Assembly: GCF_025398255.1 (NCBI RefSeq)
Contig: NZ_JAODNW010000001.1
Location: forward strand, 248,001 to 312,000
DNA from: Chelativorans intermedius
GTDB lineage: Bacteria > Pseudomonadota > Alphaproteobacteria > Rhizobiales > Rhizobiaceae
Direction of reading: 5' to 3'
Length of the DNA stretch: 64,000 nucleotides
Shown here in pieces: positions 85 to 15,822 of the stretch. Under the pieces are notes generated by a model, which made no database searches, had not been told where the DNA came from, and saw only the letters and a program-made list of their open reading frames with translations. A program made the position numbers and the translations under genes. Position 1 is the stretch's first letter; each line of letters starts with the position of its first letter.

Positions 85-1065
85 CTAGCCGCGCCCCATG
101 CGCGCCATGCGTGCCTCGCGTCCGCCGCGCCGGCGTCCGGCCGGGGCGGCCGGCTGGCCGCCGCCATTGGCGTCCCGCGCGCCTGCTGCGGAGTTGCCGG
201 CTGCCGGCTGGTGGTCGCGATAGGTCATGATCCAGGTGGTGCAGTTGGGATCGGTGCCGTTCAGCACATTGGCGGCGCGCACCATCTCCATCTCCTGCGG
301 GCGGCACGGGTTCATGATGGCGCTTGTCATGCCCGCGCCGATCACCATGGGAATGAAGGCGGCGTTGATGCCGTGGCGGTGCGGCAGGCCGAAGGAGATG
401 TTGGAAAGCCCGCAGGTGGTGTTCACCTTCAATTCCTCGCGCAGGCGGCGCAGAAGGGCGAACACCTGCTTGCCCGCCGTCCCCATGGCGCCGATCGGCA
501 TGACGAGGGGATCGACCACGATGTCGTGCGCCGGAATGCCGTAATCGGCGGCGCGCTGGACGATCTTCCGGGCCACCTCGAAACGCACATCCGGGTCTTC
601 GGAGATGCCGGTCTCGTCGTTGGAGATGGCCACCACCGGCACGTCATACTTCTTCACCAGCGGCAGGATGGCCTCCAGCTTTTCCTCCTCGCCGGTGACG
701 GAGTTGACCAGCGGGCGGCCCTTGGCCACCTTCAGCGCCGCCTCGATGGCGGCCGAGACCGAGGAATCGATGGACAATGGAACATCCACCAGATCCTGCA
801 CGATCTGGAGCGTCTGAACGAGAAGCTCCGGCTCGGTCGCGTTGGGGTCCACCGCAGTGACGCCGGCATTGACATCCAGCATGGTGGCGCCGGCGGCGAC
901 CTGATCGAGCGCGTCCTTTTTGACCGTCTCGAAATTGCCGGCCACCATCTCGGCGGCGAGCTTCTTGCGGCCTGTCGGGTTGATGCGTTCGCCGATAACG
1001 CAGAAAGGCTGGTCGAAGCCGATGACGACTTCCTTGGTCGCAGAGGCGACGATGGTGCGGGTCAT
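85..1065 (-). CDS. Methyltetrahydrofolate:corrinoid methyltransferase-like (pterin-binding, DHPS-fold) protein
   Basis: 326 aa. The TIM-barrel pterin-binding fold is indicated by the N-terminal GERINPTGRKK (about 26-36), DVNAG (about 64-68), SIDSS and the NSVTGEE loop (about 121-127), as in the methyl-THF-binding domains of AcsE/MtrH/MetH-type enzymes. It should move a methyl group between a methyl-corrinoid protein and THF in the cytosol; the corrinoid partner is probably the product of 4998-5696. The ATG is preceded by GGAGG at 7 nt. The last ~45 residues are not part of the family: an Ala/Gly/Arg-rich tail containing APAGRRRGGRE. A perfect palindrome lies directly upstream (1081-1102). Direction of methyl transfer is inferred from the demethylase genes nearby. 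Confidence 0.88.
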   Translation of the reverse strand: MTRTIVASATKEVVIGFDQPFCVIGERINPTGRKKLAAEMVAGNFETVKKDALDQVAAGATMLDVNAGVTAVDPNATEPELLVQTLQIVQDLVDVPLSIDSSVSAAIEAALKVAKGRPLVNSVTGEEEKLEAILPLVKKYDVPVVAISNDETGISEDPDVRFEVARKIVQRAADYGIPAHDIVVDPLVMPIGAMGTAGKQVFALLRRLREELKVNTTCGLSNISFGLPHRHGINAAFIPMVIGAGMTSAIMNPCRPQEMEMVRAANVLNGTDPNCTTWIMTYRDHQPAAGNSAAGARDANGGGQPAAPAGRRRGGREARMARMGRG

Positions 1066-1080
1066 TCACAGTCCTCCAAG

Positions 1081-1102
1081 GATATAAAGACTTCTTTATA
1101 TC
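1081..1102 (-). promoter_or_regulatory. Perfect palindromic operator, copy 1
   Basis: Arms GATATAAAGA and TCTTTATATC flank a CT centre, a perfect 10+2+10 palindrome. It ends 15 nt before the ATG of the pterin methyltransferase, just upstream of the ribosome binding site. Copy 2 lies before the homocysteine methyltransferase. The form resembles sites described for ArsR-family methionine-cycle regulators (SahR/SamR type); that assignment is from memory and no ArsR gene is in the window. Confidence 0.72.
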
Positions 1103-1270: not shown

Positions 1271-2365
1271 TCACCTCGCCGCATCCTTCACCATCTCTCC
1301 AGGCTTTTCCCGTGGTGCATCGAGAATGTGGTCGAGGCGCTCGGCCACCATGGCGTCGTCAGGGCCGGGCTCGCGCTTCCACGGGCGGCGGCCTTTGAGC
1401 ACGCCAGATTCATGAACAATCTCGGCGACATACTCCTCCTGCCGGTATGCCATCACATGGATGCCGGACACGCCCTCGATCTCCTTCACCTCGTTGATGA
1501 TGTCGATGCACAGGCGCTTGCCTTCTTCCTTCTGCTTCTCGGCTCCCTCCAGCCGCGCGATGATGGAGTCGGGAATGTGAACGCCCGGCACGTTGGAGCG
1601 GATCCAGCGTGCCGTGCGCGCCGAGGCCAGCGGCCCGACGCCGATCAGGATGAAGCACTTCTCGTGCAGACCCATGTCACGCACGCGCTTCATGTACTCC
1701 TTGAGCATCGGCACGTCGAAACAATACTGGCTCTGAACGAACTGTGCGCCAGCGGCGATCTTCTTGGCCAGCCTCAGGGGACGGAAGTCGTAGGGCGGGG
1801 CGAAGGGGTTGATGGCTGCTCCCAGAAAGACCGCCGGCGGCGTGGTGAGCTTGCGCCCGGAGAGGAAACGCTCCTCGTCGCGCATGGTGCGGATGGTTTC
1901 GAGAAGCGACATGCAGTCGAGGTCGAAAACGGGCTTGGCGCCCGGCTGGTCTCCCGCCTGCACGCCATCGCCTGTCAGGCACAGGATGTTGGAGACGCCC
2001 ATGGCCGCCGCCCCCAGCACGTCGCCCTGGATGGCGATGCGGTTCCTGTCGCGGCAGGCGATCTGCATGATCGGCGCATAGCCCATGCGGGTGAGCAGCG
2101 CGCAGATGCCCATGGAGGACATGTGGCAGTTGGCACCGGAGGCATCGACGGCGTTGATGCCGTCGACCCAGCCGTCGAAGACGGCAGCGCGCTCATAGAC
2201 GTCCTGCGCGTTGGCGCTGTCGGGCGGGTTCAACTCGGCGGTGACGGCGAACTCGCCGCGCCTCAAGATCCGCTCCAGACGCCCGCGCGAGGAGTGGCCG
2301 GGCAACGGTTCGAGCGGCAGATGCGCGCCTTCCGGGTTCTCGTCGGGTTGGGGCAGGCGGCTCAT
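1271..2365 (-). CDS. metF: Methylenetetrahydrofolate reductase (MetF superfamily)
   Basis: 364 aa. TIM-barrel flavoprotein of the MetF family: EFAVTAELNPPDS near the N-terminus (the Glu of the usual 'FE..PP' start), CLTGDG for FAD binding, and FVQSQYCFD in the place of the family 'TQ..FD' motif. It interconverts methylene-THF and methyl-THF; beside a corrinoid demethylase, oxidation of methyl-THF for one-carbon assimilation or energy is likely. The ATG at 2365 overlaps the stop of the MetV-like gene in an ATGA, so the two are translationally coupled and probably form a MetFV complex. A much longer reading frame to 2818 is rejected because it overlaps the well-supported MetV frame. Confidence 0.88.
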   Translation of the reverse strand: MSRLPQPDENPEGAHLPLEPLPGHSSRGRLERILRRGEFAVTAELNPPDSANAQDVYERAAVFDGWVDGINAVDASGANCHMSSMGICALLTRMGYAPIMQIACRDRNRIAIQGDVLGAAAMGVSNILCLTGDGVQAGDQPGAKPVFDLDCMSLLETIRTMRDEERFLSGRKLTTPPAVFLGAAINPFAPPYDFRPLRLAKKIAAGAQFVQSQYCFDVPMLKEYMKRVRDMGLHEKCFILIGVGPLASARTARWIRSNVPGVHIPDSIIARLEGAEKQKEEGKRLCIDIINEVKEIEGVSGIHVMAYRQEEYVAEIVHESGVLKGRRPWKREPGPDDAMVAERLDHILDAPREKPGEMVKDAAR

Positions 2366-2961
2366 GCGGTCTCCCGTGCCTTTTTGCGCTCGGCGGCGGC
2401 CTGCGCGGTGACGCGCAGCCAGGCCGAGCTCTCGCGCAGCGACTGGTCGACCGGCTTTTGCACGGCAAGGATGGAGTCGCGATTGCGCATTGCCTGCGCG
2501 CCTTCCCACGCCTTCACCCACACGCAGGGCATGTCGGGCTCCACCTCGCAATTGCCGTTGGCCCGCACGCCGCCGCAGGGGCCGTTGCGAAGCTGCTTGG
2601 GGCAGTTCATGGGGCAGGACATGCCGGTGGAGGAGAGAATGCACTGGCCGCACATGCGGCAGTCGAACATGAAGCCCTTGACGTGCCGCTCCACGAATTT
2701 CACCGGCCTTTCCGCGCGCGCATAGCCGATGGCGTTCCAAACCGGGTGCAGCATCAGGAAGACATGGGCGAAGCGGGCATACAGCCCTTCCAGAAAGCGC
2801 GCATGGCGCACCGACCAAAGACGCATCGTGTAGCGCCGTTGCACGCGGCGCTGCGGCGAGACACCGGCCGGCCGGTAGGCGAGCAGCGCGCGCGCCTTTC
2901 TCACCAGAGTCGCCTGGGTGACGCGGGGCTTGCGTTCGGGCTCGCTGTCACTGCTTGGCAT
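2362..2961 (-). CDS. metV: MetV-like protein (MTHFR C-terminal cysteine-rich domain)
   Basis: 199 aa. Eight cysteines lie at about residues 101, 104, 107, 116, 120, 129, 138 and 146, including CRMCGQC, SCPMNCPK and NGPCGG. This is the stand-alone 'methylene-tetrahydrofolate reductase C-terminal' domain known as MetV in acetogens, where it binds metal or Fe-S and pairs with MetF. It overlaps metF by 4 nt downstream and the small gene upstream by 14 nt, so all three are one transcript. The first ~45 residues are basic and variable. Which cofactor the cysteines bind cannot be read from the sequence. Confidence 0.85.
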   Translation of the reverse strand: MPSSDSEPERKPRVTQATLVRKARALLAYRPAGVSPQRRVQRRYTMRLWSVRHARFLEGLYARFAHVFLMLHPVWNAIGYARAERPVKFVERHVKGFMFDCRMCGQCILSSTGMSCPMNCPKQLRNGPCGGVRANGNCEVEPDMPCVWVKAWEGAQAMRNRDSILAVQKPVDQSLRESSAWLRVTAQAAAERKKARETA

Positions 2962-3250
2962 GTCCGCCTGCCTTGACGAGCGCCTTCAGCCGCTCGTCGG
3001 GAAAGTCGCGCTCGATGGCCGCCAGCGCCTTGTCGGCCTCCGCTTCCAGATCGTCGCCTACGGCGACGGGCTCGCCACGCCGCCATTCGGCCAGATAGGC
3101 ATCGGTGTCGCGCGCGCCCACGCGCATGGCGCACATGTCCACGGCCTCGATGAAGCGCGGCGGCAGCTCGCGCTTGGCCGTCTTCCGCCCCTTCTTCACG
3201 ATCACCTGTGCGGGGATGTCGCGCCAGTAAACCACGATCAGATCGGCCAT
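2948..3250 (-). CDS. Small 'virulence factor' family protein linked to MetF/MetV
   Basis: 100 aa. Begins MADLIVVYWRDIPAQVIVK and contains RDTDAYLAEWRRG. This is the small family that databases label 'virulence factor' (a Pfam family of that name, as I recall); in alphaproteobacteria it is commonly found next to metF-like genes. The label is historical and does not describe its job here. The start at 3250 is chosen because conserved sequence begins at this Met; 14 extra upstream residues are possible. It overlaps metV by 14 nt, which suggests a role as a subunit or maturation factor for the MetFV pair (inference). Confidence 0.75.
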   Translation of the reverse strand: MADLIVVYWRDIPAQVIVKKGRKTAKRELPPRFIEAVDMCAMRVGARDTDAYLAEWRRGEPVAVGDDLEAEADKALAAIERDFPDERLKALVKAGGHAKQ

Positions 3251-3358: not shown

Positions 3359-4009
3359 TCAAGACGCGATGAGAACGCTGGCAAGAACGCTGGCTGCGCC
3401 GATGACCACGGCGATGACCGCCAGGGAGAGCACCCCGCAGGTCACGGCTATTCCCAGCAACACGCCGTCGCGCTCCGACAGGGCCAGGCCAACAAGCGCG
3501 CAGGAGAAGGCGGGAAACCAGTTGCCGAGTGGAATCGGCAGGGTGACGGCGACCGCGAGCACGAAGGCGATCAGGCCGATAAGGCGGTCGGCATGGTCGC
3601 GCGCGAAGGGCCATACGCGCGGGCGGATGAGCTGCTCGGCCCATTTGAGCCGCGGGATCAGGCGCTCGCTTAAGCGGCGGAACTGCTCCGCGCTCACCGA
3701 CTTCCTGAGGACGAAGCGCGGCAACCAGACGGTGCGTCGGCCAAGCAGCATCTGCAGCGAAAGCAGGATGAGCGGAAGGCCGAGCACCAGCGTGCTGCCG
3801 GGCGGCAGGGGCAGCATGTTGAGGCAGGAAAAGAAGATCAGCAGCGTGGCGAAGCTGCGGTCGCCGAGGGCCTGGCGCAACGCCTCGACCGTCACAACGC
3901 CCTCGGCCTCTCTGGCCATCTCCTCGAAGATCGTGGACAGGCGACGCGGCGGATGGCCGGCGGCAGGCTGTCCAGACGCCATGCCCAGATCCGTTCCCTC
4001 CGCCTTCAC
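3359..4009 (-). CDS. exoD: ExoD-family membrane protein
   Basis: 216 aa, inner-membrane protein with about four or five hydrophobic segments (about 53-88, 143-163, 167-190, 190-215) after a soluble N-terminus. FEEMAREAEGVVTVEALRQALGDR and the following hydrophobic PLPPGSTLVLGLPLILLS segment fit the ExoD family, first linked to exopolysaccharide synthesis and alkaline tolerance in rhizobia; its biochemical role is unknown. The start at 4009 is a GTG with AAGGA upstream; an ATG at 3982 is an alternative. It lies between DUF1638 and the MetV operon but with gaps of over 100 nt on both sides, so it may be an unrelated resident. Confidence 0.8.
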   Translation of the reverse strand: MKAEGTDLGMASGQPAAGHPPRRLSTIFEEMAREAEGVVTVEALRQALGDRSFATLLIFFSCLNMLPLPPGSTLVLGLPLILLSLQMLLGRRTVWLPRFVLRKSVSAEQFRRLSERLIPRLKWAEQLIRPRVWPFARDHADRLIGLIAFVLAVAVTLPIPLGNWFPAFSCALVGLALSERDGVLLGIAVTCGVLSLAVIAVVIGAASVLASVLIAS

Positions 4010-4137: not shown

Positions 4138-4773
4138 TCAAGTCGCCGGCGCACGCGCCGCCACGCCGGCCAGCGCCGTCGCCAGATCGCCATATCCGGT
4201 GAAGCGGCGTTCATAGGCAAGGCCCAGAAAGGCGGCAGCCTCGCGGGCCACCTTTTCCAGCGCCGGATCGTCCGTCTGCGCCAGATAGACGAGCTTTTCG
4301 TAGTTGCCGAAATAGTCCTTCACCAGCTCCGGGTGGCGGTCGAGACGCAGCGGCTTCAGGAAGAAAGCCTCGAAATGGCGGCAAAGGAAATCCGTCATGT
4401 AGAACGACAGCATGTCGCCCTCGCCGATTGCGGCAAAGGCATCGAGCCCCTGATAGAAGGCGAAGCAGTGAGGCCCGGCGATGCGCTCCACCCCATGCTT
4501 CTCGCATATGCGGTCGATCCGGCCGCCGGTTCCGCAATCGGCGTAGCCGACGAAGATGTGTCTGTAGCCTTCCTCCCTGGCGCGGATGATGGCCGTGTCG
4601 AGGGCGGGGGGGATGCGCGCCGGCCGATAGTGAAACTCCGCCGGCAGGCATGTCAGTTCCAGATGGTCGAGGCCCATCCGTTCGCGCACGGCCAGCACCT
4701 CGCGGGCGATCATCCCGCAGGCGATGACCAGAACCTTCTCGCCGCTCGTGCGTTGCGGTGATGTCGTTGCCAT
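4138..4773 (-). CDS. DUF1638 protein (corrinoid methyltransferase-associated)
   Basis: 211 aa, soluble. Recognised by GEKVLVIACGMIAREVLAV, YADCGTGG and GPHCFAFY; three Cys (ACG, DCG, HCF) and several His are well placed to bind metal. DUF1638 genes recur beside MttB-type methyltransferases and corrinoid proteins in bacteria and methanogenic archaea, but no function is established. ATG 4773 is preferred over 4791 because GGAAGG stands 5 nt before it. Context suggests a role in corrinoid loading, activation or substrate handling (inference). Confidence 0.8.
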   Translation of the reverse strand: MATTSPQRTSGEKVLVIACGMIAREVLAVRERMGLDHLELTCLPAEFHYRPARIPPALDTAIIRAREEGYRHIFVGYADCGTGGRIDRICEKHGVERIAGPHCFAFYQGLDAFAAIGEGDMLSFYMTDFLCRHFEAFFLKPLRLDRHPELVKDYFGNYEKLVYLAQTDDPALEKVAREAAAFLGLAYERRFTGYGDLATALAGVAARAPAT

Positions 4774-4821
4774 TTGTCCTTCCCGCGCCATAATGGGCGC
4801 TTCGAAACGAGGAGACGCACC

Positions 4822-4997: not shown

Positions 4998-5696
4998 CTA
5001 GACGGCGGCGTTCACGTTGTGCTTGCGCCGCATCAGCTCCTTGGCGGTCTCCACCGCCACCGCGGCATCCCGGCAGTAGGCATCGGCGCCGACGGCCTGC
5101 CCGAACTCCTCGTTGAGCGGCGCGCCGCCCACGAGCACGATCAGGTCGTCACGGATGCCCTTCTCCTTGAGTGCGTCGATGACCACCTTCATGTAGGGCA
5201 TCGTGGTGGTCAGCAGCGCCGACATGCCGACGATGTCCGGCTTGTGCTTCTCGATGGCTTCCAGGTAATTCTCCACCGGGTTGTTGATGCCCAGGTCGAT
5301 CACCTCGAAGCCCGCACCCTCCATCATCATGCCGACGAGGTTCTTGCCGATGTCGTGGATGTCGCCCTTCACGGTGCCGATCACCATCTTGCCCTGCTTC
5401 GGCGCGCCGGTTTCGACGAGCAGCGGACGCAGAATGGACATGCCGGCCTTCATCGCGTTGGCGGACAGAAGCACCTCCGGCACGAAGAGAATGCCGTCGC
5501 GGAAGTCCTCGCCCACGATGCGCATGCCCTCCACCAGTGCCTCGGTCAATACGCGGTAGGGCGCCCAGCCGCGATCCAGCAGGATGCGCGTGCCTTCCTC
5601 GATCTCCTCCTTCAGCCCATCATAAAGATCGTCTTGCATCTGCTGGACGAGTTCGTCGTCGGGCAACTCGGAAAGAATGATTTCGTCGTCGGACAT
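4998..5696 (-). CDS. Corrinoid (B12-binding) methyl-carrier protein, MtbC/MttC type
   Basis: 232 aa. The N-terminal four-helix cap domain (about 1-95) is followed by a cobalamin-binding Rossmann domain. The Co-ligating motif DIHDIG is at 112-117 (DxHxxG, His114 as lower axial ligand), then GMSALLTTTMPYM (about 157-169) and VLVGGAPLNEEFG (about 190). This is the methyl shuttle between the MttB-type enzymes and the pterin methyltransferase. It diverges from an mttB homologue across a 298-nt region with an 11-bp inverted repeat, so the two are likely co-controlled. Reactivation of Co(II) would need a RACo/RamA-type protein, which is not in this window. Confidence 0.93.
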   Translation of the reverse strand: MSDDEIILSELPDDELVQQMQDDLYDGLKEEIEEGTRILLDRGWAPYRVLTEALVEGMRIVGEDFRDGILFVPEVLLSANAMKAGMSILRPLLVETGAPKQGKMVIGTVKGDIHDIGKNLVGMMMEGAGFEVIDLGINNPVENYLEAIEKHKPDIVGMSALLTTTMPYMKVVIDALKEKGIRDDLIVLVGGAPLNEEFGQAVGADAYCRDAAVAVETAKELMRRKHNVNAAV

Positions 5697-5994: not shown

Positions 5995-7584
5995 ATGAAC
6001 CAGAAGGTGTCGATCGACGAGAACATGCAGGTGAGTGGAGCCGGCGGGGGCCGGCGCGGCCGCGGGGAGCGCGGCGGCGCGGCAGCCCGGCGCGCGGCGC
6101 GCAGCGGTGGCGGTCCCGTTCAGCAGCTCGGCTATATCCGTCGCGTGCGGCCTGCCCACGAGATCCTGGATGAGGAGGGCCTTGCCCTCATCGAAGCCAA
6201 TGCAGACACGGTGCTGGAGGAGATCGGCATCGAGTTCCGCGACGACGCGGAGGCGCTGGCGTTGTGGAAGGAGGCTGGCGCCGATGTGCGGGGCGACCGG
6301 GTGCACTTTCCCAAGGGTCTTTGCCGGGAGCTGCTCAAGACGGCGCCTTCGGTCTTCACCCAGCACGCGCGCAATCCCGAGCGCTCGGTCCAGATTGGCG
6401 GCAATGCCACCGTCTTCGCCCCGGTCTACGGCCCGCCCTTCGTGCGCGACCTCGACGGTGTGCGCCGCTATGCCACCATCGAGGATTTCCGCAACTTCGT
6501 GAAGCTGTCCTATATGGCGCCTGCCATCCACCATTCGGGCGGCACCGTGTGCGAGCCGGTGGACGTGCCGGTCAACAAGCGCCACCTCGACATGGTCTAT
6601 GCGCATATGCGCTTTTCCGACAAGCCCTTCATGGGCTCGGTCACCGCGCCAGAGCGCGCCGAGGACACGGTGGAGATGGCGAAGATCCTGTTCGGCGAGG
6701 AGTTCGTCGACAACAACACCGTCGTCATCAACCTGATCAACGCCAACTCGCCCATGGTCTTCGACGAGACCATGCTGGGGGCGGCCAAGGTCTATGCGCG
6801 TAACAACCAGGCGTGCATCGTCACGCCCTTCATTCTCTCCGGCGCCATGAGCCCGGTCACGGTGGCCGGCACGCTGACCCAGGTGCTGGCAGAGGTGCTG
6901 GCGGGCGCTGCCTTCACGCAGCTCGTGCGGCCGGGAGCGCCGGTGGTGTTCGGCACCTTCGCCTCGTCGATCTCCATGCAGTCGGGCGCGCCCACCTTCG
7001 GCACGCCGGAGCCCTCGCTCGTCTCCTATGGCGCGGCACAGCTCGCCCGCCGGCTGGGGCTGCCCTTCCGCACCGGCGGCTCGCTGACGGCATCCAAGGT
7101 GCCCGATGCGCAATCGGCCTATGAGAGCGCCAACACGCTCAACTCCACCGTGATGGCGGGCACGAACTTCGTGCTTCACGCCGCCGGCTGGCTGGAGGGC
7201 GGGCTCGTCTCCTCCTACGAGAAGTTCATGATGGACATCGACCAGCTCGGCATGCAGCAGCGCCTGTGCGAGCCCCTTGACCTGTCGGAGAACGGCCAGG
7301 CGATGGATGCCATCCGCGAGGTGGGGCCGGGCAGCCACTATCTGGGCTGCGCACACACTCAGGCGAACTTCCAGACCGCCTTCTACCGCTCGACGATCGC
7401 CGACAACAATTCCTACGAGCAGTGGCAGGCGGAAGGCGAGAAGACCGCGCAGGCCCGCGCCAACCAGCTCGCCAGGAACTGGCTGGAATCCTACCAGCCT
7501 CCGGCGCTCGACGAGGCGATCGACGAGGCGCTGCAGGACTACATCGCCCGTCGCAAGGAGTCGATGCCGGACGCCTTTGCCTAA
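5995..7584 (+). CDS. Trimethylamine methyltransferase (MttB) family protein A, non-pyrrolysine
   Basis: 529 aa. The MttB-type TIM barrel begins near HEILDEEGLALIEANADTVLEEIG; later ATIEDFRNFVKLSYM, NANSPMVFDETM, GAMSPVTVAG, QSGAPTFGTPEP and HAAGWLEGGL are family hallmarks. The frame is uninterrupted, so no in-frame amber (pyrrolysine) codon is used. Non-Pyl members include glycine betaine, proline betaine and carnitine demethylases that methylate a corrinoid protein; the substrate here cannot be told. ATG 5995 has AGGGA 8 nt upstream; 5986 is possible. Residues about 15-40 form an Arg/Gly-rich stretch (GGGRRGRGERGG) not seen in the core family. Its 3' end overlaps the convergent homocysteine methyltransferase by 4 nt. 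Confidence 0.9.
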   Translation: MNQKVSIDENMQVSGAGGGRRGRGERGGAAARRAARSGGGPVQQLGYIRRVRPAHEILDEEGLALIEANADTVLEEIGIEFRDDAEALALWKEAGADVRGDRVHFPKGLCRELLKTAPSVFTQHARNPERSVQIGGNATVFAPVYGPPFVRDLDGVRRYATIEDFRNFVKLSYMAPAIHHSGGTVCEPVDVPVNKRHLDMVYAHMRFSDKPFMGSVTAPERAEDTVEMAKILFGEEFVDNNTVVINLINANSPMVFDETMLGAAKVYARNNQACIVTPFILSGAMSPVTVAGTLTQVLAEVLAGAAFTQLVRPGAPVVFGTFASSISMQSGAPTFGTPEPSLVSYGAAQLARRLGLPFRTGGSLTASKVPDAQSAYESANTLNSTVMAGTNFVLHAAGWLEGGLVSSYEKFMMDIDQLGMQQRLCEPLDLSENGQAMDAIREVGPGSHYLGCAHTQANFQTAFYRSTIADNNSYEQWQAEGEKTAQARANQLARNWLESYQPPALDEAIDEALQDYIARRKESMPDAFA

Positions 7585-8600
7585 CCGCGTCCGCGCCGCC
7601 GCTCCCGCCGGCCGGCGGGGGCGCTGGCAGCACCGCTCTGGGCCGCCCCCTTGTTGCGCATGGGGCCCACGCGCGCCTCGATCTCGGCAATGGTGGGCGG
7701 CTGTGTCTTCTTGTGCTCGTCGAGGGCCCTGCGCATGGCGGCCAGATGTTCGAACGTGGTGCCGCAGCAGCCGCCGATGATCCTGGCGCCGCCATCGACG
7801 GCAAGGCGCACATAGTCGGCCATCAGCTCCGGGGTGCCGGAATAATGGACCTCCGCGCCACGGAACTCCGGCACGCCGCAATTGCCCTTCACCACCACCG
7901 TGGCCTGCGGGCGTGCCTCCACCATGTCGAGCAGGGCGGCCAGGATGTCGGGCGCGCCGACGCCGCAATTGGCGCCGACGGCAACCGGCTTTTCGGGAAG
8001 ATCGTCGGCCACCGCGTGAATGTCCTTCGGCGCCAGGCCCATCATCGTGCGCCCGGCGGTGTCGAAAGAGCCGGTGTAGGTATAGGGCAGGCCGGCGCGG
8101 ATGGCCGCTTCCGCAGCGGCGCGGATTTCGTCGGGCGCCGACATGGTCTCGATCCAGGCAACCTCGGCGCCGCCGGCCTTGAGCCCCTCGATCTGCTCCA
8201 GGAACGCCTCCACGGCCGCCTCGTATGTCAGCGCGCCGAGCGGCTGCAGAAGCTCGCCCGTGGGGCCGACCGAGCCGGCCACGATGACGCGGCTGCCCGC
8301 CTTTGCCGCCACCCGGCAGGCGATCTCCGCCGCTTTCCTGTTCAGCTCGAACACGCGGTCCTGCGCGTTGTGCAGCTTGAGGCGATGGCGCGTGCCGCCG
8401 AAGGAATTGGTGAGGATGATGTCGGCACCGGCGTCGATGAAACCCTGGTGCAGCGCCTCGATCTTTTCGGGTGCCGTCTCGTTCCACAGCTCCGGCGCTT
8501 CGCCCGACTCCAGCCCCATGGCAAAGAGATTGGTGCCTGTCGCGCCGTCGGCGAGGAGCACGCCCTTTTCCGCCAGCAGCGCATCAATGGGATTGTGCAT
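7581..8600 (-). CDS. BHMT-type homocysteine S-methyltransferase
   Basis: 339 aa. Pfam S-methyl_trans fold: LLADGATGTNLF (about 15-26), the zinc-ligand Cys in GANCGVG (Cys212) and the GGCCGT pair (Cys288, Cys289). It would methylate homocysteine to methionine; the methyl donor could be a betaine, S-methylmethionine or methylated corrinoid. The start is set at 8600 because GGAAGG lies 7 nt upstream; a longer frame to 8669 would translate the operator palindrome (8642-8661) and is rejected. The C-terminus has a SAPAGRRERRRGRG tail matching the tail of the pterin methyltransferase. Confidence 0.88.
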   Translation of the reverse strand: MHNPIDALLAEKGVLLADGATGTNLFAMGLESGEAPELWNETAPEKIEALHQGFIDAGADIILTNSFGGTRHRLKLHNAQDRVFELNRKAAEIACRVAAKAGSRVIVAGSVGPTGELLQPLGALTYEAAVEAFLEQIEGLKAGGAEVAWIETMSAPDEIRAAAEAAIRAGLPYTYTGSFDTAGRTMMGLAPKDIHAVADDLPEKPVAVGANCGVGAPDILAALLDMVEARPQATVVVKGNCGVPEFRGAEVHYSGTPELMADYVRLAVDGGARIIGGCCGTTFEHLAAMRRALDEHKKTQPPTIAEIEARVGPMRNKGAAQSGAASAPAGRRERRRGRG

Positions 8601-8714: not shown

Positions 8715-9563
8715 TCAGTCCAGGTCAAGGCGGCGCACGAAGTCCGCCGTCTCGTGTGCGTTCACCTCGGCAATGCGGATGAGGCCGTCGAAATGGCGGG
8801 TCAGCGTGGTGATGGTCTGGCGGGCGTTCAGCACCAGATACATGCCGCCGAGATAGATCGCCGCGCGATAGGGGCCGAAGATCGTGTAGGGGGCGGAGAA
8901 GCGGGCCCGCCAGTCGAAGAGGAACAGGCGGAAGGTCGGATAGAGATCGTCGATGAGATCGGCCATATGCGCAAGCTGCCGGGCGCGCACCGCGCGCGGC
9001 AGGCCGCTCCAGCGGCCAAGCCCGCGGGCGAACAGCTCCAGCGTCTGGCGCGGCATGCACACCTCCATGTCGGTCTCGGGGCGGCGGTTGTAGTCCACGC
9101 GGTACTGCGCCTCGTCGCGCTGGGCTTGGCGGCTCGTCTTGGCGGCATCGGCCTCGAAGTCGATCACCTCGTCGCTCCTCAGGAGGTCTGGAATGCCCGA
9201 CGGCACATAGCGGATCTTGGTGCCCACCGCCTCGGCGTGCCATCTGGCCAGCAGCGTGCTGCCAAAACCGCCTTCCGCCTCCGCGATTTCCATGTTCTCG
9301 CGCAGTTCGCCGGTGATGCCCTCGTCCTGGCTCAGGCCCAGAAGCCAGTCCAGCGAGACCTGATGGCGCGCGGCGATGTTCATCAGCGTCTCGGCGCGCG
9401 GCAGGCGCGTCGAGCTGCCGGCCAGAAGCTGGGAGAGGGCAGAGCGGTCGATGCCCACGGCGGCAGCGAAGGCGGACTGGTTGAGCCCGGAGCGCTGAAG
9501 GAGGATTTTCAGCCGCTCGCGGAAGATCTCGGAGAGATCGCGCTTGTCGATGGCCTGGCTCAT
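8715..9563 (-). CDS. XRE-family transcriptional regulator with a C-terminal effector-like domain
   Basis: 282 aa. N-terminal helix-turn-helix of the lambda-Cro type: LKILLQRSGLNQSAFAAAVG then DRSALSQLLAG (about 18-50). The C-terminal ~200 residues (from about 90) are a conserved but uncharacterised domain with many aromatics (TFRLFLFDWRARFSAPYTIFG). Upstream of a demethylation cluster it is a candidate local regulator; the effector is unknown. Divergent from the desaturase gene. A likely autoregulatory site is at 9581-9602. It does not obviously explain the ATATAAAGA palindromes, which look like sites of a different family. Confidence 0.82.
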   Translation of the reverse strand: MSQAIDKRDLSEIFRERLKILLQRSGLNQSAFAAAVGIDRSALSQLLAGSSTRLPRAETLMNIAARHQVSLDWLLGLSQDEGITGELRENMEIAEAEGGFGSTLLARWHAEAVGTKIRYVPSGIPDLLRSDEVIDFEADAAKTSRQAQRDEAQYRVDYNRRPETDMEVCMPRQTLELFARGLGRWSGLPRAVRARQLAHMADLIDDLYPTFRLFLFDWRARFSAPYTIFGPYRAAIYLGGMYLVLNARQTITTLTRHFDGLIRIAEVNAHETADFVRRLDLD

Positions 9564-9738: not shown

Positions 9739-10749
9739 ATGGAAAAGAGGAACGAGCGCCGGCGCGGCCGCCCGGCGGTTGAGTGGCCGACTGTTGTTTT
9801 GATCGTGTCCTGCTATGCCGTCTGGGCCGCTGCGGGCGTTGTCGTCTGGCCTGTCTGGCCACTGGCGGCGCTCCTGCTTCTTTCTCTCGCCATCGCGCTT
9901 CACTCTTCTCTCATGCACGAGTGCCTGCACGGGCATCCGACGCGCAGCGCGCGGGTCAACGAGGCGCTGGTGGGCCTGCCGATCGGGCTCGTCTACCCCT
10001 ATCGCCGCTTCAAGGCGCTGCATCTGCGCCATCATGCCGACGAGCGGTTGACCGACCCCTTCGAGGACCCCGAAAGCTACTACCGGGCGCTGTGGCAGTA
10101 TGAAAAGCTGCCGGCGGTGGTGAAGCGCCTACTCCAGATCAACAACACCATGCTCGGCCGGTTCGTGCTGGGTCCGCCCATCATGAATGCCGCCTTCCTT
10201 GTCGGGGAGGCGAGGCTTCTCATCGCCGGCGACAGGACGGTTTGGCGCGCCTGGGCGCTGCATGCGGCGGGTCTGGCGGTCGTGCTGCCGATCATTGTCC
10301 ATGTCTTCGCCATGCCGCTGTGGCTGTACATGCTGGTGCCGGCCTGGCTCGGCCAGTCCATCATCTCCGTGCGCACGTTCGCCGAGCACCAATGGTCCGA
10401 GCGGCCGGATGGCCGCACCATCATCGTCGAGCGTTCGCCGCTTGCCTTCCTGTTTCTCAACAACAACCTGCATCTGGTGCATCACAAGATGCCGCATGTG
10501 CCCTGGTATCGTCTGCCGGCGCTTTATCGCGAAAGGCGGGAAGGGTGGCTGGCCATGAATGGCGGCTATGCCTATCCCAACTATTTCGCCCTTTTTCGCG
10601 ATTTCGCGCTGCGTGCCAAGGAGCCGGTGCCTCATCCGGTGCTGCGGCGCGAGCCGCATCCGCCGCGTGCCTTTCGCCCGCGTGTGCGCGGCCGCTCGCT
10701 GACCGGGTCGGGAAGTGTTCCCGTTCCCGCCCGGCCAGCCAGGGAGTAG
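9739..10749 (+). CDS. Membrane fatty acid desaturase-family protein
   Basis: 336 aa, integral membrane di-iron enzyme. The three histidine boxes are present: HECLH at 60-64, HLRHH at 95-99 and HLVHH at 245-249, with hydrophobic segments between (about 18-55, 172-212). The family includes acyl desaturases and hydroxylases; the substrate is not evident. The basic start MEKRNERRRGR fits a cytosolic N-terminus; the ATG at 9739 is chosen over an upstream extension that would run through the XRE promoter. It is followed 38 nt later by the PhnD-like gene, probably one transcript, and its place between the regulator and the flavoenzyme hints at a link to the amine pathway (inference). Confidence 0.82.
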   Translation: MEKRNERRRGRPAVEWPTVVLIVSCYAVWAAAGVVVWPVWPLAALLLLSLAIALHSSLMHECLHGHPTRSARVNEALVGLPIGLVYPYRRFKALHLRHHADERLTDPFEDPESYYRALWQYEKLPAVVKRLLQINNTMLGRFVLGPPIMNAAFLVGEARLLIAGDRTVWRAWALHAAGLAVVLPIIVHVFAMPLWLYMLVPAWLGQSIISVRTFAEHQWSERPDGRTIIVERSPLAFLFLNNNLHLVHHKMPHVPWYRLPALYRERREGWLAMNGGYAYPNYFALFRDFALRAKEPVPHPVLRREPHPPRAFRPRVRGRSLTGSGSVPVPARPARE

Positions 10750-10787: not shown

Positions 10788-11594
10788 ATGAGCTGCCTTG
10801 TCGCCGCCCTTCCCATGTATGACTGGCCGGAGATGCGGGCCGAGACGGATGCCTTCTGGGCGCGCGCCTGCGCGGCGCTGCGGCGGGCGGGCATCGACGC
10901 GCCCGCGCGTCTTGCGCGCCGCAATGCCGACCTTCCGGCGGTGCCCGGCGGCATCCGCGACGCGCAGGGCCGCCCGGTCGCGCCCGACCCGGCAACCCTG
11001 CCGCCGGAGGCATTCGACCTTTCGGCGCTGTGGCGCCATCCGCGCCTTCTTGTGGGACAGACCTGCTGGGGTCCGATGGAGGCGGGGCTGCGGGACCATG
11101 TGCAGGTCGTCGGCCAGCCCGACTACTCGGCCCATGAGGGCGGGGAAGGGGCGCTCTATTCGAGTGCGATCGTGATGCGCCGTGGCGAGGCACCCATCGT
11201 TGCCGCGCCGGCGGAGGGATGCGCCCGCCTTCCGCTGGCGCTGATGCGCGGCCGGCGCCTTGCCTACAACGACGCGCTGTCCATGTCCGGCCTGCTGGCG
11301 CTTGAACGTGACCTGCTGGCGGCGGGCGAAGGGCCGGCATTCTTTGCGCAAAGGATCGAGACGGGCTCCCACCGCGCCGCTGCGCTGGCGGTGGCCGAGG
11401 GGCGGGCGGATGTCTGCGCGCTCGATTGCCGCACATGGGCGCTCGTCCGGCGCTTTCTGCCGCAGGCGGACGGCCTCGTCGCGGCCGGCTGGACGGCGCG
11501 GCGAAAGGGCCTGCCCCTTGTCACGGCACGCGCTACGCCGCCGGAGCAGCTGGCCGTCCTGCGGCGGGTGCTTGGCGCTTTTCCGTCTCCATAG
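10788..11594 (+). CDS. PhnD/SsuA-type substrate-binding-fold protein lacking a signal peptide
   Basis: 268 aa. LVAALPMYDWPEMRAETDAFWARAC at the start, LVGQTCWGPM, YSSAIVMRRGEAP, LAYNDALSMSGLLAL and DVCALDCRTWALVRR match the phosphonate-binding-like type 2 periplasmic fold. There is no signal peptide or lipobox, so the protein should stay in the cytosol. No ABC permease or ATPase is adjacent. It may be a sensor or a substrate-handling protein rather than a transporter component (inference). It ends 6 nt before the convergent flavoenzyme gene. Confidence 0.75.
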   Translation: MSCLVAALPMYDWPEMRAETDAFWARACAALRRAGIDAPARLARRNADLPAVPGGIRDAQGRPVAPDPATLPPEAFDLSALWRHPRLLVGQTCWGPMEAGLRDHVQVVGQPDYSAHEGGEGALYSSAIVMRRGEAPIVAAPAEGCARLPLALMRGRRLAYNDALSMSGLLALERDLLAAGEGPAFFAQRIETGSHRAAALAVAEGRADVCALDCRTWALVRRFLPQADGLVAAGWTARRKGLPLVTARATPPEQLAVLRRVLGAFPSP

Positions 11595-11600: not shown

Positions 11601-14156
11601 TCAACCCCGCATTCGCTCTCCCTGCGGGTCGAACAGCGGCAGGCGGTTGATGCGCGCCGGGCGGCGCTCGCCGAGGATTTCGATCGCGAACAGTCCTTCG
11701 CGCTCGTCCGTCGAAAGTTCCGCCGGCACATAGCCCTGGGCCAGCGATTCTTGCACGAAGTGGCCGTAGCCGCCCGATGTCACCCAGCCGACGACGCGCC
11801 ACTCCCCGTCTTCAATGCCGCCGCCGGCGCTGGCGGGCACGGCCTCGCCGGTGCGCGTGAAGCGTGGCGCGCCGAAGCCGTGCGGCCTTTCCACCGTGCC
11901 GAAATCCTTTGCCCCGACCCGCGCCCAGATCGGCTCGTCGCCCATCACATCGGCATCCAGCGCATCGACGACGAAGGAGACGCGGGCAAGCTTCGCTCCC
12001 TCCGCCCGTTCCCTGGCCGCTGCCTCCCGGCCGATGAAATCGCCCTTGTCGAGCCTGACGAAGCGCTCCATCCCCGCCTCGAAGGGACCGTAGATGGGCC
12101 GCAGCTCGCGGAACCAGGTGGGGAAGTTCTTCTCCAGCCGCATGCACAGCAGCGCCCGCATGCCGAAATCGGCAATGCCGAATTCGGCCCCTGCCTCCTT
12201 GATCGCCAGATAGATGCGCCGCTGATAGGCGGGCTGCATCCATATCTCATAGCCGAGGTCGCCGGTGTAGGTGAGGCGGCCCACCATGGCCGGCGCGCCG
12301 GCAACCGCCATCTCGCGGAAGTCCATGAAGCGGAAGGCATCGCCGGACACGTCCTCGTCCACCAGCCTCTCCAGCACCGCCCGCGCGTGCGGTCCGGCAA
12401 TCGAAAGGCCGACCAGCGTCTGGTCGAAGCGGTGGATGCGCACAGAGCCATCCTCGGGCAGATGTCGCTCGAACCAGCGCATATGGTAGATCTGCGCGGC
12501 CGATGATCCCCACAGCATGAAGCGCCCGGCCTCGATACAGGCGATGGTGAAATCGCCGATGATCCTGCCCGTCTCGTTGAGCATGGGCGACAGTGCGATG
12601 CGGCCGGCCCGCGGCAGGCGATTGGTCATAAGCCGGTCGAGAAAATCCTTCGCACCCGGTCCTGAGACCTCGTATTTGGCGAAATTGGCGATTTCGGTAA
12701 CGCCGACGCGCTCGCGCACCGCGCGCACCTCCGCGCCGACATGGCGAAAGTCGTTGGAGCGGCGGAAGGAGACGATATCTTCGGCCTTTTCGCCCTCGGG
12801 CGCGAACCACAGTGGCGTCTCCAGGCCCCAGGAGTCGCCCATCACCGCGTTGTTGTCGCGCACCATGATGTCGTAGAGCGGTGTGGTCTGCGCCGGCCTT
12901 GCGGCAGGCAGCTCCTCGTTGGGAAAGCGGATGGAAAAGCGCCGCGCGTAGTTCTCACGCACCTTGGCGTTGGTGTAGCGCAGCGTCGCCCATTCGCCGA
13001 AGCGGGCGACATCCATGCCCCAGACATCGAAGCCCGGATCGCCGTCCACCATCCAGTTGGACAGCGCCAGCCCCACGCCGCCGCCCTGGGAGAAGCCGGC
13101 CATTACCGCGCAGGCCACCCAGAAGTTGGTAAGCCCGCGCACCGGCCCCACCAGCGGGTTGCCGTCAGGCGCAAAGGTGAAGGGGCCGTTGATGATCTGC
13201 TTGATGCCGGCATTCTGAAGCGCCGGGAAATGGCGGAAGCCCGTCTCCAGCGAAGGGGCTATGCGGTCTATATCGGGGGGCAGCAGCTCGTGGCCAAAGT
13301 CCCAGGGGGTTTCCCGGGGCGACCATGGCCGGCAGGCCTTTTCATAGGTGCCGAGCAGGATTCCGTCGCGCTCCTGCCGGGTGTAGATCTCGCCCTTGAA
13401 GTCGATGACACCAACGAGCTCGCGCCCGGTCTCGCGGTTGAACGCCGCCACCTCCGGCATCGGTTCGGTGAGCAGATACATGTGCTCCATGGCGAGCAAG
13501 GGCAGCTCCAGCCCCACCATGCGGCCCACCTCGCGCGCCCACAGGCCGCCGCAATTGACCACGTGCTCGGCCTTCACCGTGCCTTTCTCGGTCACCACGT
13601 TCCAGGTGCCGTCCGGTTCCTGGGAAAGCTCCACCACCCGGTTTCTGAGCACGATCTCGGCACCCAGCTTGCGCGCCGCCCGGGCATAGGCATGGGTGGT
13701 GCCGGAGGGGTCGAGATGGCCCTCCACAGGGTCCCACAGCGCGCCGACGAAATTCGTCTCGTCCATCAGCGGGAACATGGCCTTGGCTTCTGAAGGGGTG
13801 ATCAGCTCCGTCTGCATGCCGAGATAGCGGCCCTTGGCATGGACGAGACGCAGAAAGTCCATGCGCTCCGGCGTGTCGGCCATCATCACGCCGCCCGTCA
13901 GGTGCAGCCCGCAGGGCTGGCCGGAAAGCGCCTCGATCTCCTTGTAAAGCTGCACCGTATAGGCCTGCAGCTTGGCAACGTTGGGGTCGCCGTTGAGCGT
14001 GTGAAAGCCACCTGCCGCATGCCAGGAGGAGCCGGAGGTGAGCTCGGAACGCTCGATCAGCAGAACGTCGTTCCAGCCGGCGCGCGCCAGATGATAGAGC
14101 ACCGAACAGCCCACCACGCCACCACCAATCACAACAACTTTTGCATGAGATTTCAT
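11601..14156 (-). CDS. Dimethylglycine/sarcosine dehydrogenase-like FAD enzyme with GcvT domain
   Basis: 851 aa, close to DMGDH/SARDH length. The N-terminal FAD Rossmann motif GGGVVGCSVLYHLA (11-24) is followed by SGSSWHAAGGFH (41-52), whose His46 corresponds to the covalent FAD-linking His of the family. The DAO domain runs to about 370, then an FAO_M-like linker and a C-terminal GcvT/aminomethyltransferase fold (about 430-840) that would hand the methyl-derived carbon to THF as methylene-THF. Dimethylglycine or sarcosine are the likely substrates, which would continue demethylation after an MttB-type first step. It sits 82 nt behind mttB-B on the same strand. Confidence 0.87.
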   Translation of the reverse strand: MKSHAKVVVIGGGVVGCSVLYHLARAGWNDVLLIERSELTSGSSWHAAGGFHTLNGDPNVAKLQAYTVQLYKEIEALSGQPCGLHLTGGVMMADTPERMDFLRLVHAKGRYLGMQTELITPSEAKAMFPLMDETNFVGALWDPVEGHLDPSGTTHAYARAARKLGAEIVLRNRVVELSQEPDGTWNVVTEKGTVKAEHVVNCGGLWAREVGRMVGLELPLLAMEHMYLLTEPMPEVAAFNRETGRELVGVIDFKGEIYTRQERDGILLGTYEKACRPWSPRETPWDFGHELLPPDIDRIAPSLETGFRHFPALQNAGIKQIINGPFTFAPDGNPLVGPVRGLTNFWVACAVMAGFSQGGGVGLALSNWMVDGDPGFDVWGMDVARFGEWATLRYTNAKVRENYARRFSIRFPNEELPAARPAQTTPLYDIMVRDNNAVMGDSWGLETPLWFAPEGEKAEDIVSFRRSNDFRHVGAEVRAVRERVGVTEIANFAKYEVSGPGAKDFLDRLMTNRLPRAGRIALSPMLNETGRIIGDFTIACIEAGRFMLWGSSAAQIYHMRWFERHLPEDGSVRIHRFDQTLVGLSIAGPHARAVLERLVDEDVSGDAFRFMDFREMAVAGAPAMVGRLTYTGDLGYEIWMQPAYQRRIYLAIKEAGAEFGIADFGMRALLCMRLEKNFPTWFRELRPIYGPFEAGMERFVRLDKGDFIGREAAARERAEGAKLARVSFVVDALDADVMGDEPIWARVGAKDFGTVERPHGFGAPRFTRTGEAVPASAGGGIEDGEWRVVGWVTSGGYGHFVQESLAQGYVPAELSTDEREGLFAIEILGERRPARINRLPLFDPQGERMRG

Positions 14157-14238
14157 CGGGTTATGCCCCCTCGTGCAGAAATTGATTCATAGATCTGAGA
14201 CATTGATTCAAGTTCGCCGGCTGGCGCGGCGCGCCCTC

Positions 14239-15822
14239 TCAATAATCCGTCGGTGCGCCACCCTCGCGGATGCGGCGTTCGACGAAGTCGTCCAGTTCCT
14301 CGCGGATGGCGGCGTCCATGGGCGGCGGCTCGTAGGCGGCGAGCCGCGCCTTCCACAGCCGATTGGCGTGCTCCATGGCGGTGGGGCTGCCCGCCTGAGT
14401 CCAGGTCTCGTAGTTGCGCCAGTCGGAGATGAGGGGGGCGTAGAAGGCGTCCCTGTAGCGTGCCTGGGTGTGGGGGGAGCCGAAGAAATGGCCGCCGGGG
14501 CCCACCTCGCGAATCGCCTCCACCGCCAGCGCGTCCTCGCTCAGGTCGAGAGGGGCCAGAAACTCCGCCACCATCTGGAGAAGATCGATGTCGAGCATCA
14601 TCTTCTCGTAGGAGCAGACGAGCCCTCCTTCCAGCCAGCCGGCCGCATGCTTGACGAAATTCGCGCCGCCGTGGATGCAGCCCCACAGCGAGAACACGCT
14701 TTCATAGGCCGCTTGGGCATCCACCGTGTTGGCCGCGCACACATTGGAGCTGCGATAGGGAATCCCGTAGCGCCGGGCAAGCTGGCCGCCGACGATCTGC
14801 GCCTTCATGTATTCCGGCGTGCCGAAGGCCGGAGCGCCGGAGCGCATGTCCACATTGGACGTGAAGCCGCCATAGCCCACCGGGGCGCCTTTTCTGACCA
14901 TCTGCGAGAAGGCGATGGCGGCCAGCGCCTCGGCGTTCTGCTCCACCAGAGCGCCGGCCACGGTGACGGGCGCCATGGCGCCCGCCAGCGTGAAGGGGGT
15001 GACGATGATCGCCTGCCCGTGGGTCGCCATCTGGATGATGCCTTCCATCATCGGCACGTCGAGCTTCAGCGGCGAGTTGGTGTTGATGACGGTGAAGCAG
15101 GAAGGCTCGTCGCGGAACTGCTCGGGGCTGACACCGCGCACGATGCGGGCGATCTCGATGCCGTCCTGGTTGCGCTCCCTGCCCAGGGAGTAGATGTGAA
15201 AGCACTTGTCGGTGAGCGTGACGATGTCGCGCAGGCATTCCAGGTGCCGGATGCCGGGGTGAATGTCCACCGGCTCGACGGGATAGCCGCCCAGGCAATG
15301 GATGATGTTGTGCATCTGGGCAAGCTTCACGAAATTGCGGAAATCCGCCTGGTTTCCCGGCCGCCGGCCGTTGTCGGCGTCGGAACAGTTGGGTGCGGAG
15401 GCGATCTGCGCGAAAATGATGCTGTCGCCGCCCATGGAGAGGTTGTGCGCGGGATTGCGTGCGAAAACCGTATACTCCGACGGGCAATGGGCGATGAACT
15501 CCATCACCAGCGCGGCGTCGAAATGCACCCGCTGGGTGTCATCGCGCACATCCGCGCCGTGGCGGCGCATGATGGCGCGTGCCTCGTCGTGCAGCACCTC
15601 GATGCCGATTTCCTCCAGCACCCTGAGGGAGGCGAGGTGAATCGCTTCCAGCTCGTCGTCGGAGATGAGCCGCGTCGGCGGGAAGGGCACGCGCAGCCGG
15701 CGGAAGGGAGGCTGGCTGAAGGGGCCGTCACCGCCTCGCTTCGCCGCGTTGGCGGCACGTCCGCCGCGGCGTGTGCGGCCTAGCTCCTGTTTCGCCTCGG
15801 CGGCGGTCCCGGGGATGGTCAT
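14239..15822 (-). CDS. Trimethylamine methyltransferase (MttB) family protein B, non-pyrrolysine
   Basis: 527 aa, second MttB paralogue, same architecture as protein A: DDELEAIHLASLRVLEEIGIEV, NTNSPLKLDVPMMEG, GAMAPVTVAGAL, RSGAPAFGTPEYMK and HAAGWLEGGLVCSYEKMM. No in-frame amber codon. The two paralogues differ enough to suggest different substrates. ATG 15822 is set by GAGG 6 nt upstream; an 8-residue longer version is possible. The N-terminal region has a basic Arg/Gly/Ala stretch (GRTRRGGRAANAAKRGG). It is followed by the flavoenzyme gene in the same direction, so the pair could remove successive methyl groups from one substrate (inference). It presumably shares the corrinoid protein at 4998-5696. 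Confidence 0.9.
   Translation of the reverse strand: MTIPGTAAEAKQELGRTRRGGRAANAAKRGGDGPFSQPPFRRLRVPFPPTRLISDDELEAIHLASLRVLEEIGIEVLHDEARAIMRRHGADVRDDTQRVHFDAALVMEFIAHCPSEYTVFARNPAHNLSMGGDSIIFAQIASAPNCSDADNGRRPGNQADFRNFVKLAQMHNIIHCLGGYPVEPVDIHPGIRHLECLRDIVTLTDKCFHIYSLGRERNQDGIEIARIVRGVSPEQFRDEPSCFTVINTNSPLKLDVPMMEGIIQMATHGQAIIVTPFTLAGAMAPVTVAGALVEQNAEALAAIAFSQMVRKGAPVGYGGFTSNVDMRSGAPAFGTPEYMKAQIVGGQLARRYGIPYRSSNVCAANTVDAQAAYESVFSLWGCIHGGANFVKHAAGWLEGGLVCSYEKMMLDIDLLQMVAEFLAPLDLSEDALAVEAIREVGPGGHFFGSPHTQARYRDAFYAPLISDWRNYETWTQAGSPTAMEHANRLWKARLAAYEPPPMDAAIREELDDFVERRIREGGAPTDY

What the first reader, a model, noticed from the sequence alone, without database searches (positions are those of the whole stretch)
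85..15822. Corrinoid-dependent methylotrophic demethylation module in an evidently aerobic alphaproteobacterium
Seen: a pterin methyltransferase, MetF, MetV-like, corrinoid protein with DxHxxG, two non-Pyl MttB paralogues, BHMT-type enzyme, DUF1638 and a DMGDH-like flavoenzyme within 16 kb. Known: MttB-family enzymes such as MtgB demethylate quaternary amines in anaerobes. Inference: this organism combines an anaerobe-style corrinoid first step with an oxidative second step (flavoenzyme) to consume glycine betaine, proline betaine, choline or carnitine. The putA gene in the same window would fit proline betaine. Substrates of such aerobic clusters are mostly undescribed.
Basis: partly seen in the sequence, partly recalled or inferred. 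Interest (0 to 1): 0.85.

Follow-up and report, generated by a model that had tools for sequence, protein, structure and literature searches.

The report
Split B12 betaine-demethylase and methionine module
A relative of Chelativorans bacteria carries, side by side, the separate parts of a vitamin-B12 machine that most likely strips methyl groups from betaines and also makes methionine, a system described in 2025, together with one small gene misnamed a virulence factor that nearly always travels with it and has no assigned job.

Summary
In detail: every gene named is there, plus a RamA-like activase just left of the window. The cluster matches the MtgBCDE system (PNAS 2025, PMC12478193), in which one corrinoid protein (MtgC) and one pterin methyltransferase (MtgD) serve both glycine-betaine demethylation and methionine synthesis; the 'BHMT' is its homocysteine module (MtgE). 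MttB1 keeps all four predicted MtgB pocket residues (as do 44 of 44 distinct relatives); MttB2 has Ala/Gly for the pocket tyrosine (81 of 81) and is followed by a dimethylglycine-dehydrogenase homologue in 67 of 80 loci. Proline betaine (putA, 20 kb away) is weakly supported. My searches found no paper linking it to this pathway.

The parts
85..1065 (-). mtgD: methyl-THF:corrinoid (pterin-binding) methyltransferase
   Evidence: PF00809 105 bits; NF005719 404 bits over its 259 cut-off
1271..2365 (-). metF-type methylene-THF reductase, overlapping metV by 4 bp
   Evidence: PF02219 E 3e-32; start at the first Met before the domain
2362..2961 (-). metV-like (DUF5981) partner of MetF
   Evidence: PF12225 E 3.6e-28
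2948..3250 (-). PF13769 'Virulence_fact' 100-aa protein, overlapping metV by 14 bp; candidate unrecognised component of the module
   Evidence: PF13769 E 1.4e-25; co-occurrence; operon position
3359..4009 (-). ExoD-family protein inserted in the operon (role unknown)
   Evidence: PF06055 E 7.5e-48; at the same place in 2 of 14 further loci, L204 and L207, and in 0 of the 48 loci
4138..4791 (-). DUF1638 protein, implicated in corrinoid reactivation
   Evidence: PF07796 E 8.7e-23; mutant phenotype in Phaeobacter inhibens (PMC5764234, passages)
4998..5696 (-). mtgC: corrinoid protein
   Evidence: PF02607 and PF02310; NF047996 MtgC_2 218 bits, below its 370 cut-off; DIHDIG motif
5995..7584 (+). 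mttB1: non-pyrrolysine MTTB protein, mtgB candidate, divergent from mtgC (start 5995 or 6025)
   Evidence: PF06253 798 bits; 963 bits to PDB 4yyc, 415 bits to 2qne; pocket YNRH
7581..8600 (-). mtgE: homocysteine methyltransferase module ('BHMT')
   Evidence: NF005718 544 bits over its 338 cut-off; best PDB relatives are MetH homocysteine domains
8715..9563 (-). HTH_3 regulator upstream of mtgE
   Evidence: PF01381 E 1.2e-9; found in 46 of 80 related loci
9739..10749 (+). FA-desaturase-family protein, role unknown
   Evidence: PF00487 E 2.3e-34; found in 53 of 80 related loci
10788..11594 (+). PhnD-like binding protein, role unknown
   Evidence: PF12974 E 9.6e-12; found in 53 of 80 related loci
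11601..14156 (-). dimethylglycine dehydrogenase-like flavoenzyme
   Evidence: DAO+FAO_M+GCV_T domains; 605 bits to dimethylglycine dehydrogenase 4pab
14239..15822 (-). mttB2: second non-pyrrolysine MTTB protein, just upstream of the DMGDH-like gene
   Evidence: PF06253 671 bits; pocket ANRH; tree

Best explanation
This is a co-located MtgBCDE module of the kind described in Ruegeria and Sinorhizobium. MttB1 (and probably MttB2, for the same or a related quaternary amine) moves a methyl group from glycine betaine to Co(I)-MtgC; MtgD passes it to THF; MetF-MetV oxidises methyl-THF to methylene-THF for energy and carbon; the DMGDH-like enzyme removes the next methyl from dimethylglycine oxidatively. 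Run the other way, MtgD charges MtgC from methyl-THF and MtgE gives the methyl to homocysteine, making methionine, because no MetH or MetE was found in this genome. RamA and DUF1638 reduce inactive corrinoid. Shown here: genes, order, absence of hits for other methionine synthases, pocket residues, linkage. Inferred: direction of flux, substrate, reactivation role. The PF13769 protein is inferred to be a further small part, closest to the MetF/MtgD side.
For: Own genome (99.97% complete): MTTB 2 hits, both here; MetH activation domain 0; Meth_synt_2 0; one RACo/RamA, adjacent; two B12-binding-domain hits, MtgC and methylmalonyl-CoA mutase. MtgE nearer MetH than BHMT. MttB1 matches 4yyc at 963 bits and keeps Y94, N199, R309, H345 of the docked DhMtgB pocket, as do 44 of 44 distinct relatives at 60% identity or more. 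MttB2 is followed by a DMGDH homologue in 67 of 80 loci. Operon order mtgC-DUF1638-PF13769-[metV-metF]-mtgD-ramA recurs. A GbdR-like regulator gene lies near ramA. Genetics in relatives: mtgC and mtgD mutants of R. pomeroyi are methionine auxotrophs and do not grow on glycine betaine even with methionine (PMC12478193, parts 1-4 of 6 read); three-part methionine synthase plus RamA-like and DUF1638 proteins in P. inhibens (PMC5764234, passages).
Against: I have no expression or biochemistry for this organism. In vitro, P. inhibens Bmt (the MtgE homologue) made methionine directly from betaine or DMSP without THF or cobalamin (PMC12366255, passages), so MtgE may also act alone. In the parts of the PNAS paper that I read no mttB gene was deleted, so which MttB acts on glycine betaine is open. 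MtgC here scores below the curated cut-off of the MtgC_2 model, and the GbdR-like protein below that of the GbdR model. The pocket residues come from docking, not from a liganded structure. A second, generic homocysteine S-methyltransferase lies on contig C9.
Confidence: 0.8

Rival explanations
1. One reading: a purely catabolic methylotrophy module for several betaines, with the BHMT-type protein a true betaine-homocysteine methyltransferase independent of the corrinoid.
For: All catabolic parts are present; P. inhibens Bmt uses betaine directly in vitro (PMC12366255, passages).
Against: No hit for another methionine synthase domain in the genome; MtgE closer to the MetH homocysteine domain (147 bits) than to the solved BHMT 1lt7 (41 bits); PMC12478193 states that the S. 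meliloti-type protein lacks the betaine-binding residues of human BHMT (not tested here).
Confidence: 0.12
2. MttB1 and MttB2 have different substrates: MttB1 glycine betaine; MttB2 another quaternary amine whose demethylated product is oxidised by the linked DMGDH-like enzyme. (Compatible with the best explanation.)
For: 45% identical to each other and separated in the tree; pocket Tyr94 is Tyr in 44 of 44 distinct MttB1 relatives and Ala/Gly in 81 of 81 MttB2 relatives at 60% identity or more; PMC12478193 notes up to seven MTTB genes per genome and suggests diverse substrates.
Against: The flavoenzyme next to MttB2 is a plain DMGDH homologue, which points to glycine betaine as the substrate of MttB2 as well; both MTTB proteins SPO2108 and SPO2134 of R. 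pomeroyi rise on N-osmolytes (PMC12478193), and I did not place them in the tree.
Confidence: 0.5
3. The mtg genes serve methionine synthesis only and the MTTB genes are vestigial or act elsewhere.
For: DUF1638, RamA-like, MtgC, MtgD and MtgE homologues are important for methionine synthesis in P. inhibens (PMC5764234, passages).
Against: Both MTTB frames are intact and conserved beside mtgC or DMGDH across genera; 48 genomes are shared between the 53 with MTTB and the 49 with DUF1638.
Confidence: 0.05

Closest known systems
MtgBCDE of Ruegeria pomeroyi and Sinorhizobium meliloti (PMC12478193)
   Same: Same protein families: MTTB, MtgC, MtgD, MtgE, MetF, RamA, DUF1638; co-located as reported for S. 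meliloti; no MetH found, as in 108 of 156 MtgBCD genomes there
   Different: Scattered loci in R. pomeroyi; S. meliloti keeps MetH (PMC5764234); here there is a MetV gene and a second MttB paired with a DMGDH homologue. PF13769 is not named in the main text (term search); figures and supplements were not seen
Split methionine synthase of Phaeobacter inhibens (PMC5764234, passages)
   Same: Three separate MetH modules plus RamA-like and DUF1638 proteins
   Different: The passages I saw treat methionine only, not demethylation
MtgB/MtgC/MtgA of Desulfitobacterium hafniense and MtgB of Methanolobus vulcani (PMC6855144, passages)
   Same: MttB1 matches DhMtgB (2qne) at 415 bits and keeps the four docked pocket residues
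   Different: Anaerobes; 43% identity; separate cobalamin-protein lineage according to PMC12478193; Phe353 is Gly here
Dimethylglycine dehydrogenase (PDB 4pab; mammalian, recalled)
   Same: 605 bits over nearly the whole length
   Different: Bacterial, and genetically linked to an MTTB gene

Membership tests
MtgBCDE dual module | MTTB protein without pyrrolysine | tested here: met
   Two MTTB frames, no in-frame stop
MtgBCDE dual module | Stand-alone corrinoid protein with cap and B12 domain | tested here: met
   PF02607+PF02310, DIHDIG motif; but below the NF047996 cut-off
MtgBCDE dual module | Pterin-binding methyltransferase and homocysteine module as separate genes | tested here: met
   NF005719 and NF005718 over their cut-offs
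MtgBCDE dual module | RamA-like and DUF1638 reactivation proteins | tested here: met
MtgBCDE dual module | Methionine auxotrophy and loss of betaine use on mtgC deletion | not testable with these tools
   Needs a mutant
Classical MetH | Fused protein with activation domain PF02965 | tested here: not met
   0 hits in own genome; 137 of 241 class genomes have one
True BHMT (human/SAR11 type) | Betaine-binding residues of human BHMT | not tested
   Only overall similarity compared; statement taken from PMC12478193
Glycine betaine methyltransferase MtgB (DhMtgB) | Predicted (docked) pocket Y94, N199, R309, H345 | tested here: met
   MttB1: all four. MttB2: three of four, Ala for Tyr94
Glycine betaine methyltransferase MtgB (DhMtgB) | Glycine-betaine:Co(I) methyl transfer | not testable with these tools
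   Needs purified protein
Pyrrolysine MttB (TIGR02369 trimeth_pyl) | Score over the family cut-off of 525 bits | tested here: not met
   277 and 314 bits
Dimethylglycine dehydrogenase | Enzyme activity on dimethylglycine | not testable with these tools
   Homology only

The most novel reading that the evidence does not exclude
The PF13769 'Virulence_fact' protein is, in these bacteria, not a virulence factor but a dedicated, so far unrecognised component of the split corrinoid methyltransferase of Pseudomonadota: a small partner of the folate side (MetF-MetV or MetF2 with MtgD), or of corrinoid reactivation with DUF1638 and RamA, that lets the oxygen-sensitive Co(I) chemistry run in aerobes. 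Methanosarcina acetivorans, with MTTB, RACo and DUF1638, lacks it. Deleting it should cause methionine auxotrophy, loss of growth on glycine betaine, or both.
Probability: 0.55. Interest if true: 0.6.

Novelty: new member of a known kind. Interest (0 to 1): 0.45.

Why it matters
The locus ties methionine synthesis and betaine catabolism into one B12-dependent module in a relative of rhizobia, with all parts, including two kinds of MttB and a paired dimethylglycine dehydrogenase homologue, in one stretch of about 25 kb: a good system for testing which MttB takes which substrate. The near-perfect co-occurrence and operon position of PF13769 give a function-prediction lead for a family now named after virulence, and a simple gene-deletion test in Ruegeria, Phaeobacter or Sinorhizobium laboratory strains. 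The module itself is already published, which lowers the interest.

Tried and rejected
Proline betaine through putA: putA is real but 20 kb away on the other strand; no evidence of linkage, so not adopted.

PF13769 as a partner of MetV only: rejected. MetV (PF12225) is in only 20 of 241 genomes, 18 of them shared with PF13769.

Riboswitch control: no Rfam match in the window at gathering threshold.

Literature on PF13769: searches (searches; term searches inside PMC12478193 and PMC5764234) gave nothing linking it to this pathway. One search listed 20 of 67 papers, 10 of 19, 4 of 4; most listed papers were about unrelated uses of the words. Figures and supplements (for instance Fig. 4 of PMC12478193) could not be seen.

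Mended counts: my first pocket count (54 MttB1, 81 MttB2) held the window's own copy and genes fetched twice; one search removed 1 own copy and 9 duplicates (140 to 130 proteins) and gives 44 and 81. Tree: proteins were first sorted by their better-matching query, so separation is partly by construction; support for the MttB2 node was only 0.595.
Full report
OBSERVATION. On the minus strand lie mtgD 85-1065, metF 1271-2365, metV 2362-2961, a PF13769 gene 2948-3250, an ExoD gene 3359-4009, DUF1638 4138-4791 and mtgC 4998-5696. mttB1 runs the other way from about 5995 to 7584. Then come mtgE 7581-8600 (-), an HTH gene 8715-9563 (-), an FA-desaturase-family gene 9739-10749 (+), a PhnD-like gene 10788-11594 (+), a DMGDH-like gene 11601-14156 (-) and mttB2 14239-15822 (-). 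Start codons are my choice from the frames. Just left of the window are a RamA-like activase, a GbdR-like AraC regulator (374 bits, below the 480 cut-off) and a second DMGDH-like gene.

GENOME CONTEXT. The window lies in a 4.18-Mb genome, 99.97% complete. Its nearest named relatives by MttB2 are Chelativorans species. The whole genome has two MTTB hits, both here; no hit for the MetH activation domain or for Meth_synt_2, the MetE catalytic domain; one RACo/RamA; two homocysteine S-methyltransferases, MtgE and a generic one on C9; and two B12-binding-domain hits, MtgC and methylmalonyl-CoA mutase. So MtgC is the only corrinoid protein of methyltransferase type found, and MtgC+MtgD+MtgE is the only evident methionine synthase.

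WHAT IT IS. PMC12478193 (parts 1-4 of 6 read) shows in Ruegeria pomeroyi that mtgC and mtgD are needed both for methionine synthesis and for glycine-betaine use, proposes MTTB proteins as MtgB and the 'BHMT' as homocysteine module MtgE, and says that in S. meliloti MtgBCDE, both reactivation modules and the cobalamin operon lie together. PMC5764234 (passages) had shown the split methionine synthase with RamA-like and DUF1638 proteins in P. inhibens. The window fits this closely; a CobB-like gene lies at its far end (62560-63999). Against a purely split-enzyme reading, PMC12366255 (passages) reports that P. inhibens Bmt makes methionine directly from betaine or DMSP in vitro.

THE TWO MttB PROTEINS. 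MttB1 matches PDB 4yyc at 963 bits and DhMtgB (2qne) at 415; MttB2 matches them at 395 and 339. PMC6855144 (passages) proposes by docking that Y94, N199, R309 and H345 of DhMtgB contact glycine betaine. Of 130 distinct MTTB proteins in fetched loci (140 less one own copy and nine duplicates), the 44 nearest MttB1 at 60% identity or more all read YNRH; the 81 nearest MttB2 read ANRH (64) or GNRH (17); five more distant ones read FNRH (2) or GNRH (3). A tree rooted on DhMtgB separates 47 MttB1 from 85 MttB2 proteins, window copies included (support 0.995 and 0.595), but groups were assigned by best match beforehand. In the 80 best MttB2 loci (the best 80 kept of 246), a DMGDH homologue starts within 400 bp downstream of the match in 51 and is the next detected gene in 16 more; 13 lack it. 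Many of these loci are close relatives, but seven loci of Comamonadaceae or Rhodoferax-type records (L066, L068, L076, L077, L084, L086, L087) also have the pair. The DMGDH-like protein matches dimethylglycine dehydrogenase 4pab at 605 bits. This favours glycine betaine to dimethylglycine to sarcosine; the changed pocket leaves room for another substrate for MttB2.

PF13769, THE NEW LEAD. In the same 241 alphaproteobacterial genomes, MTTB occurs in 53, PF13769 in 50, DUF1638 in 49, MetV in 20 and the MetH activation domain in 137. All 50 PF13769 genomes are among the 53 with MTTB; 188 have neither (Fisher p 1.3e-48, which ignores relatedness). The three MTTB genomes without it are G062 and G209, with only distant MTTB matches (E 2.0e-76 and 8.6e-78), and G236, whose otherwise complete operon (L166) lacks it, so it is not strictly indispensable. 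One of the 50, G006, rests on a partial match at a contig edge. Presence and absence vary together within families f25, f35, f56, f67, f92 and f113 (labels). 29 of the 53 MTTB genomes lack the MetH activation domain. Among the 14 control genomes PF13769 is found only in Bacillus subtilis, which has no MTTB hit, so the domain has other uses outside these bacteria; Methanosarcina acetivorans has MTTB, RACo and DUF1638 without it.

OPERON POSITION. I fetched 48 PF13769 loci (of 51 hits in 50 genomes; G006, at a contig edge, and the window's own were not fetched, and the two hits of G154 share one locus) and two comparison loci. In 44 of 48 a neighbouring detected gene on the same strand within 2,500 bp is a module gene; DUF1638 lies within 300 bp in 32. 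Of the four exceptions, L143 and L146 have an MTHFR-family gene directly downstream; L147 is a 4.8-kb contig; L149 begins near a contig end and has no module gene on the side that can be seen. A wider search found PF13769 in 54 of 397 Pseudomonadota genomes (MTTB was not searched in that sample). Of these I fetched 14 loci, my choice, and 14 of 14 have module neighbours, including two outside the Alphaproteobacteria (L198, L199) with the order mtgC-DUF1638-PF13769-metF-mtgD-ramA. In 63 loci (48, 14 and L070) the best-scoring frame that starts within 500 bp downstream is MetF-like in 28 (9 MetF, 19 MetF2), MetV in 11, MtgD in 9, RamA in 4 and unassigned in 11; three of the 19 MetF2 are the seeds of that model, and one seed (L118) has no Pfam match at 1e-5. 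In the window the gene overlaps metV, which overlaps metF. Conserved residues include WRDIPAQV and a later RF..A.D..A pattern (two of 48 extracted proteins, L146 and L148, were mis-extracted and stayed in that count).

VERDICT. A co-located member of a published kind of system, with one unrecognised, strongly linked small gene. The role of PF13769 is inference from linkage alone; I commit to a partner of the folate side (MetF/MtgD) as slightly likelier than a reactivation role, because MetF-type or MetV genes follow it in 39 of 63 loci.

Noticed in passing
window 2948-3250 (-): PF13769 'Virulence_fact' gene inside the operon, near-perfect co-occurrence with MTTB genes in Alphaproteobacteria.
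   Followed up: yes
window 9739-10749 (+) and 10788-11594 (+): FA-desaturase-family protein and a PhnD-like protein, each found in 53 of 80 loci around MttB2; role unknown.
   Followed up: partly
window 3359-4009 (-): ExoD-family gene between DUF1638 and PF13769; also there in L204 and L207.
   Followed up: no
L003 14151-15230 (-): GbdR-like AraC/DJ-1 regulator near ramA, also seen beside the module in other loci (for example L130, L148, L154, L155).
   Followed up: partly
L003 10615-13191 (+): Second DMGDH-like flavoenzyme; perhaps the next demethylation step.
   Followed up: no
window 62560-63999 (-): CobB/CobQ-like gene at the end of the window: B12 synthesis genes may start nearby.
   Followed up: no
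L146 5087-9296: PF13769 followed by an MTHFR-family gene and then cobalamin-synthesis genes (TP_methylase, CbiG).
   Followed up: partly
L167 (G107): A genome with DUF1638, MetV and a distant MtgC but no MTTB or PF13769 hit: probably another kind of corrinoid pathway.
   Followed up: no
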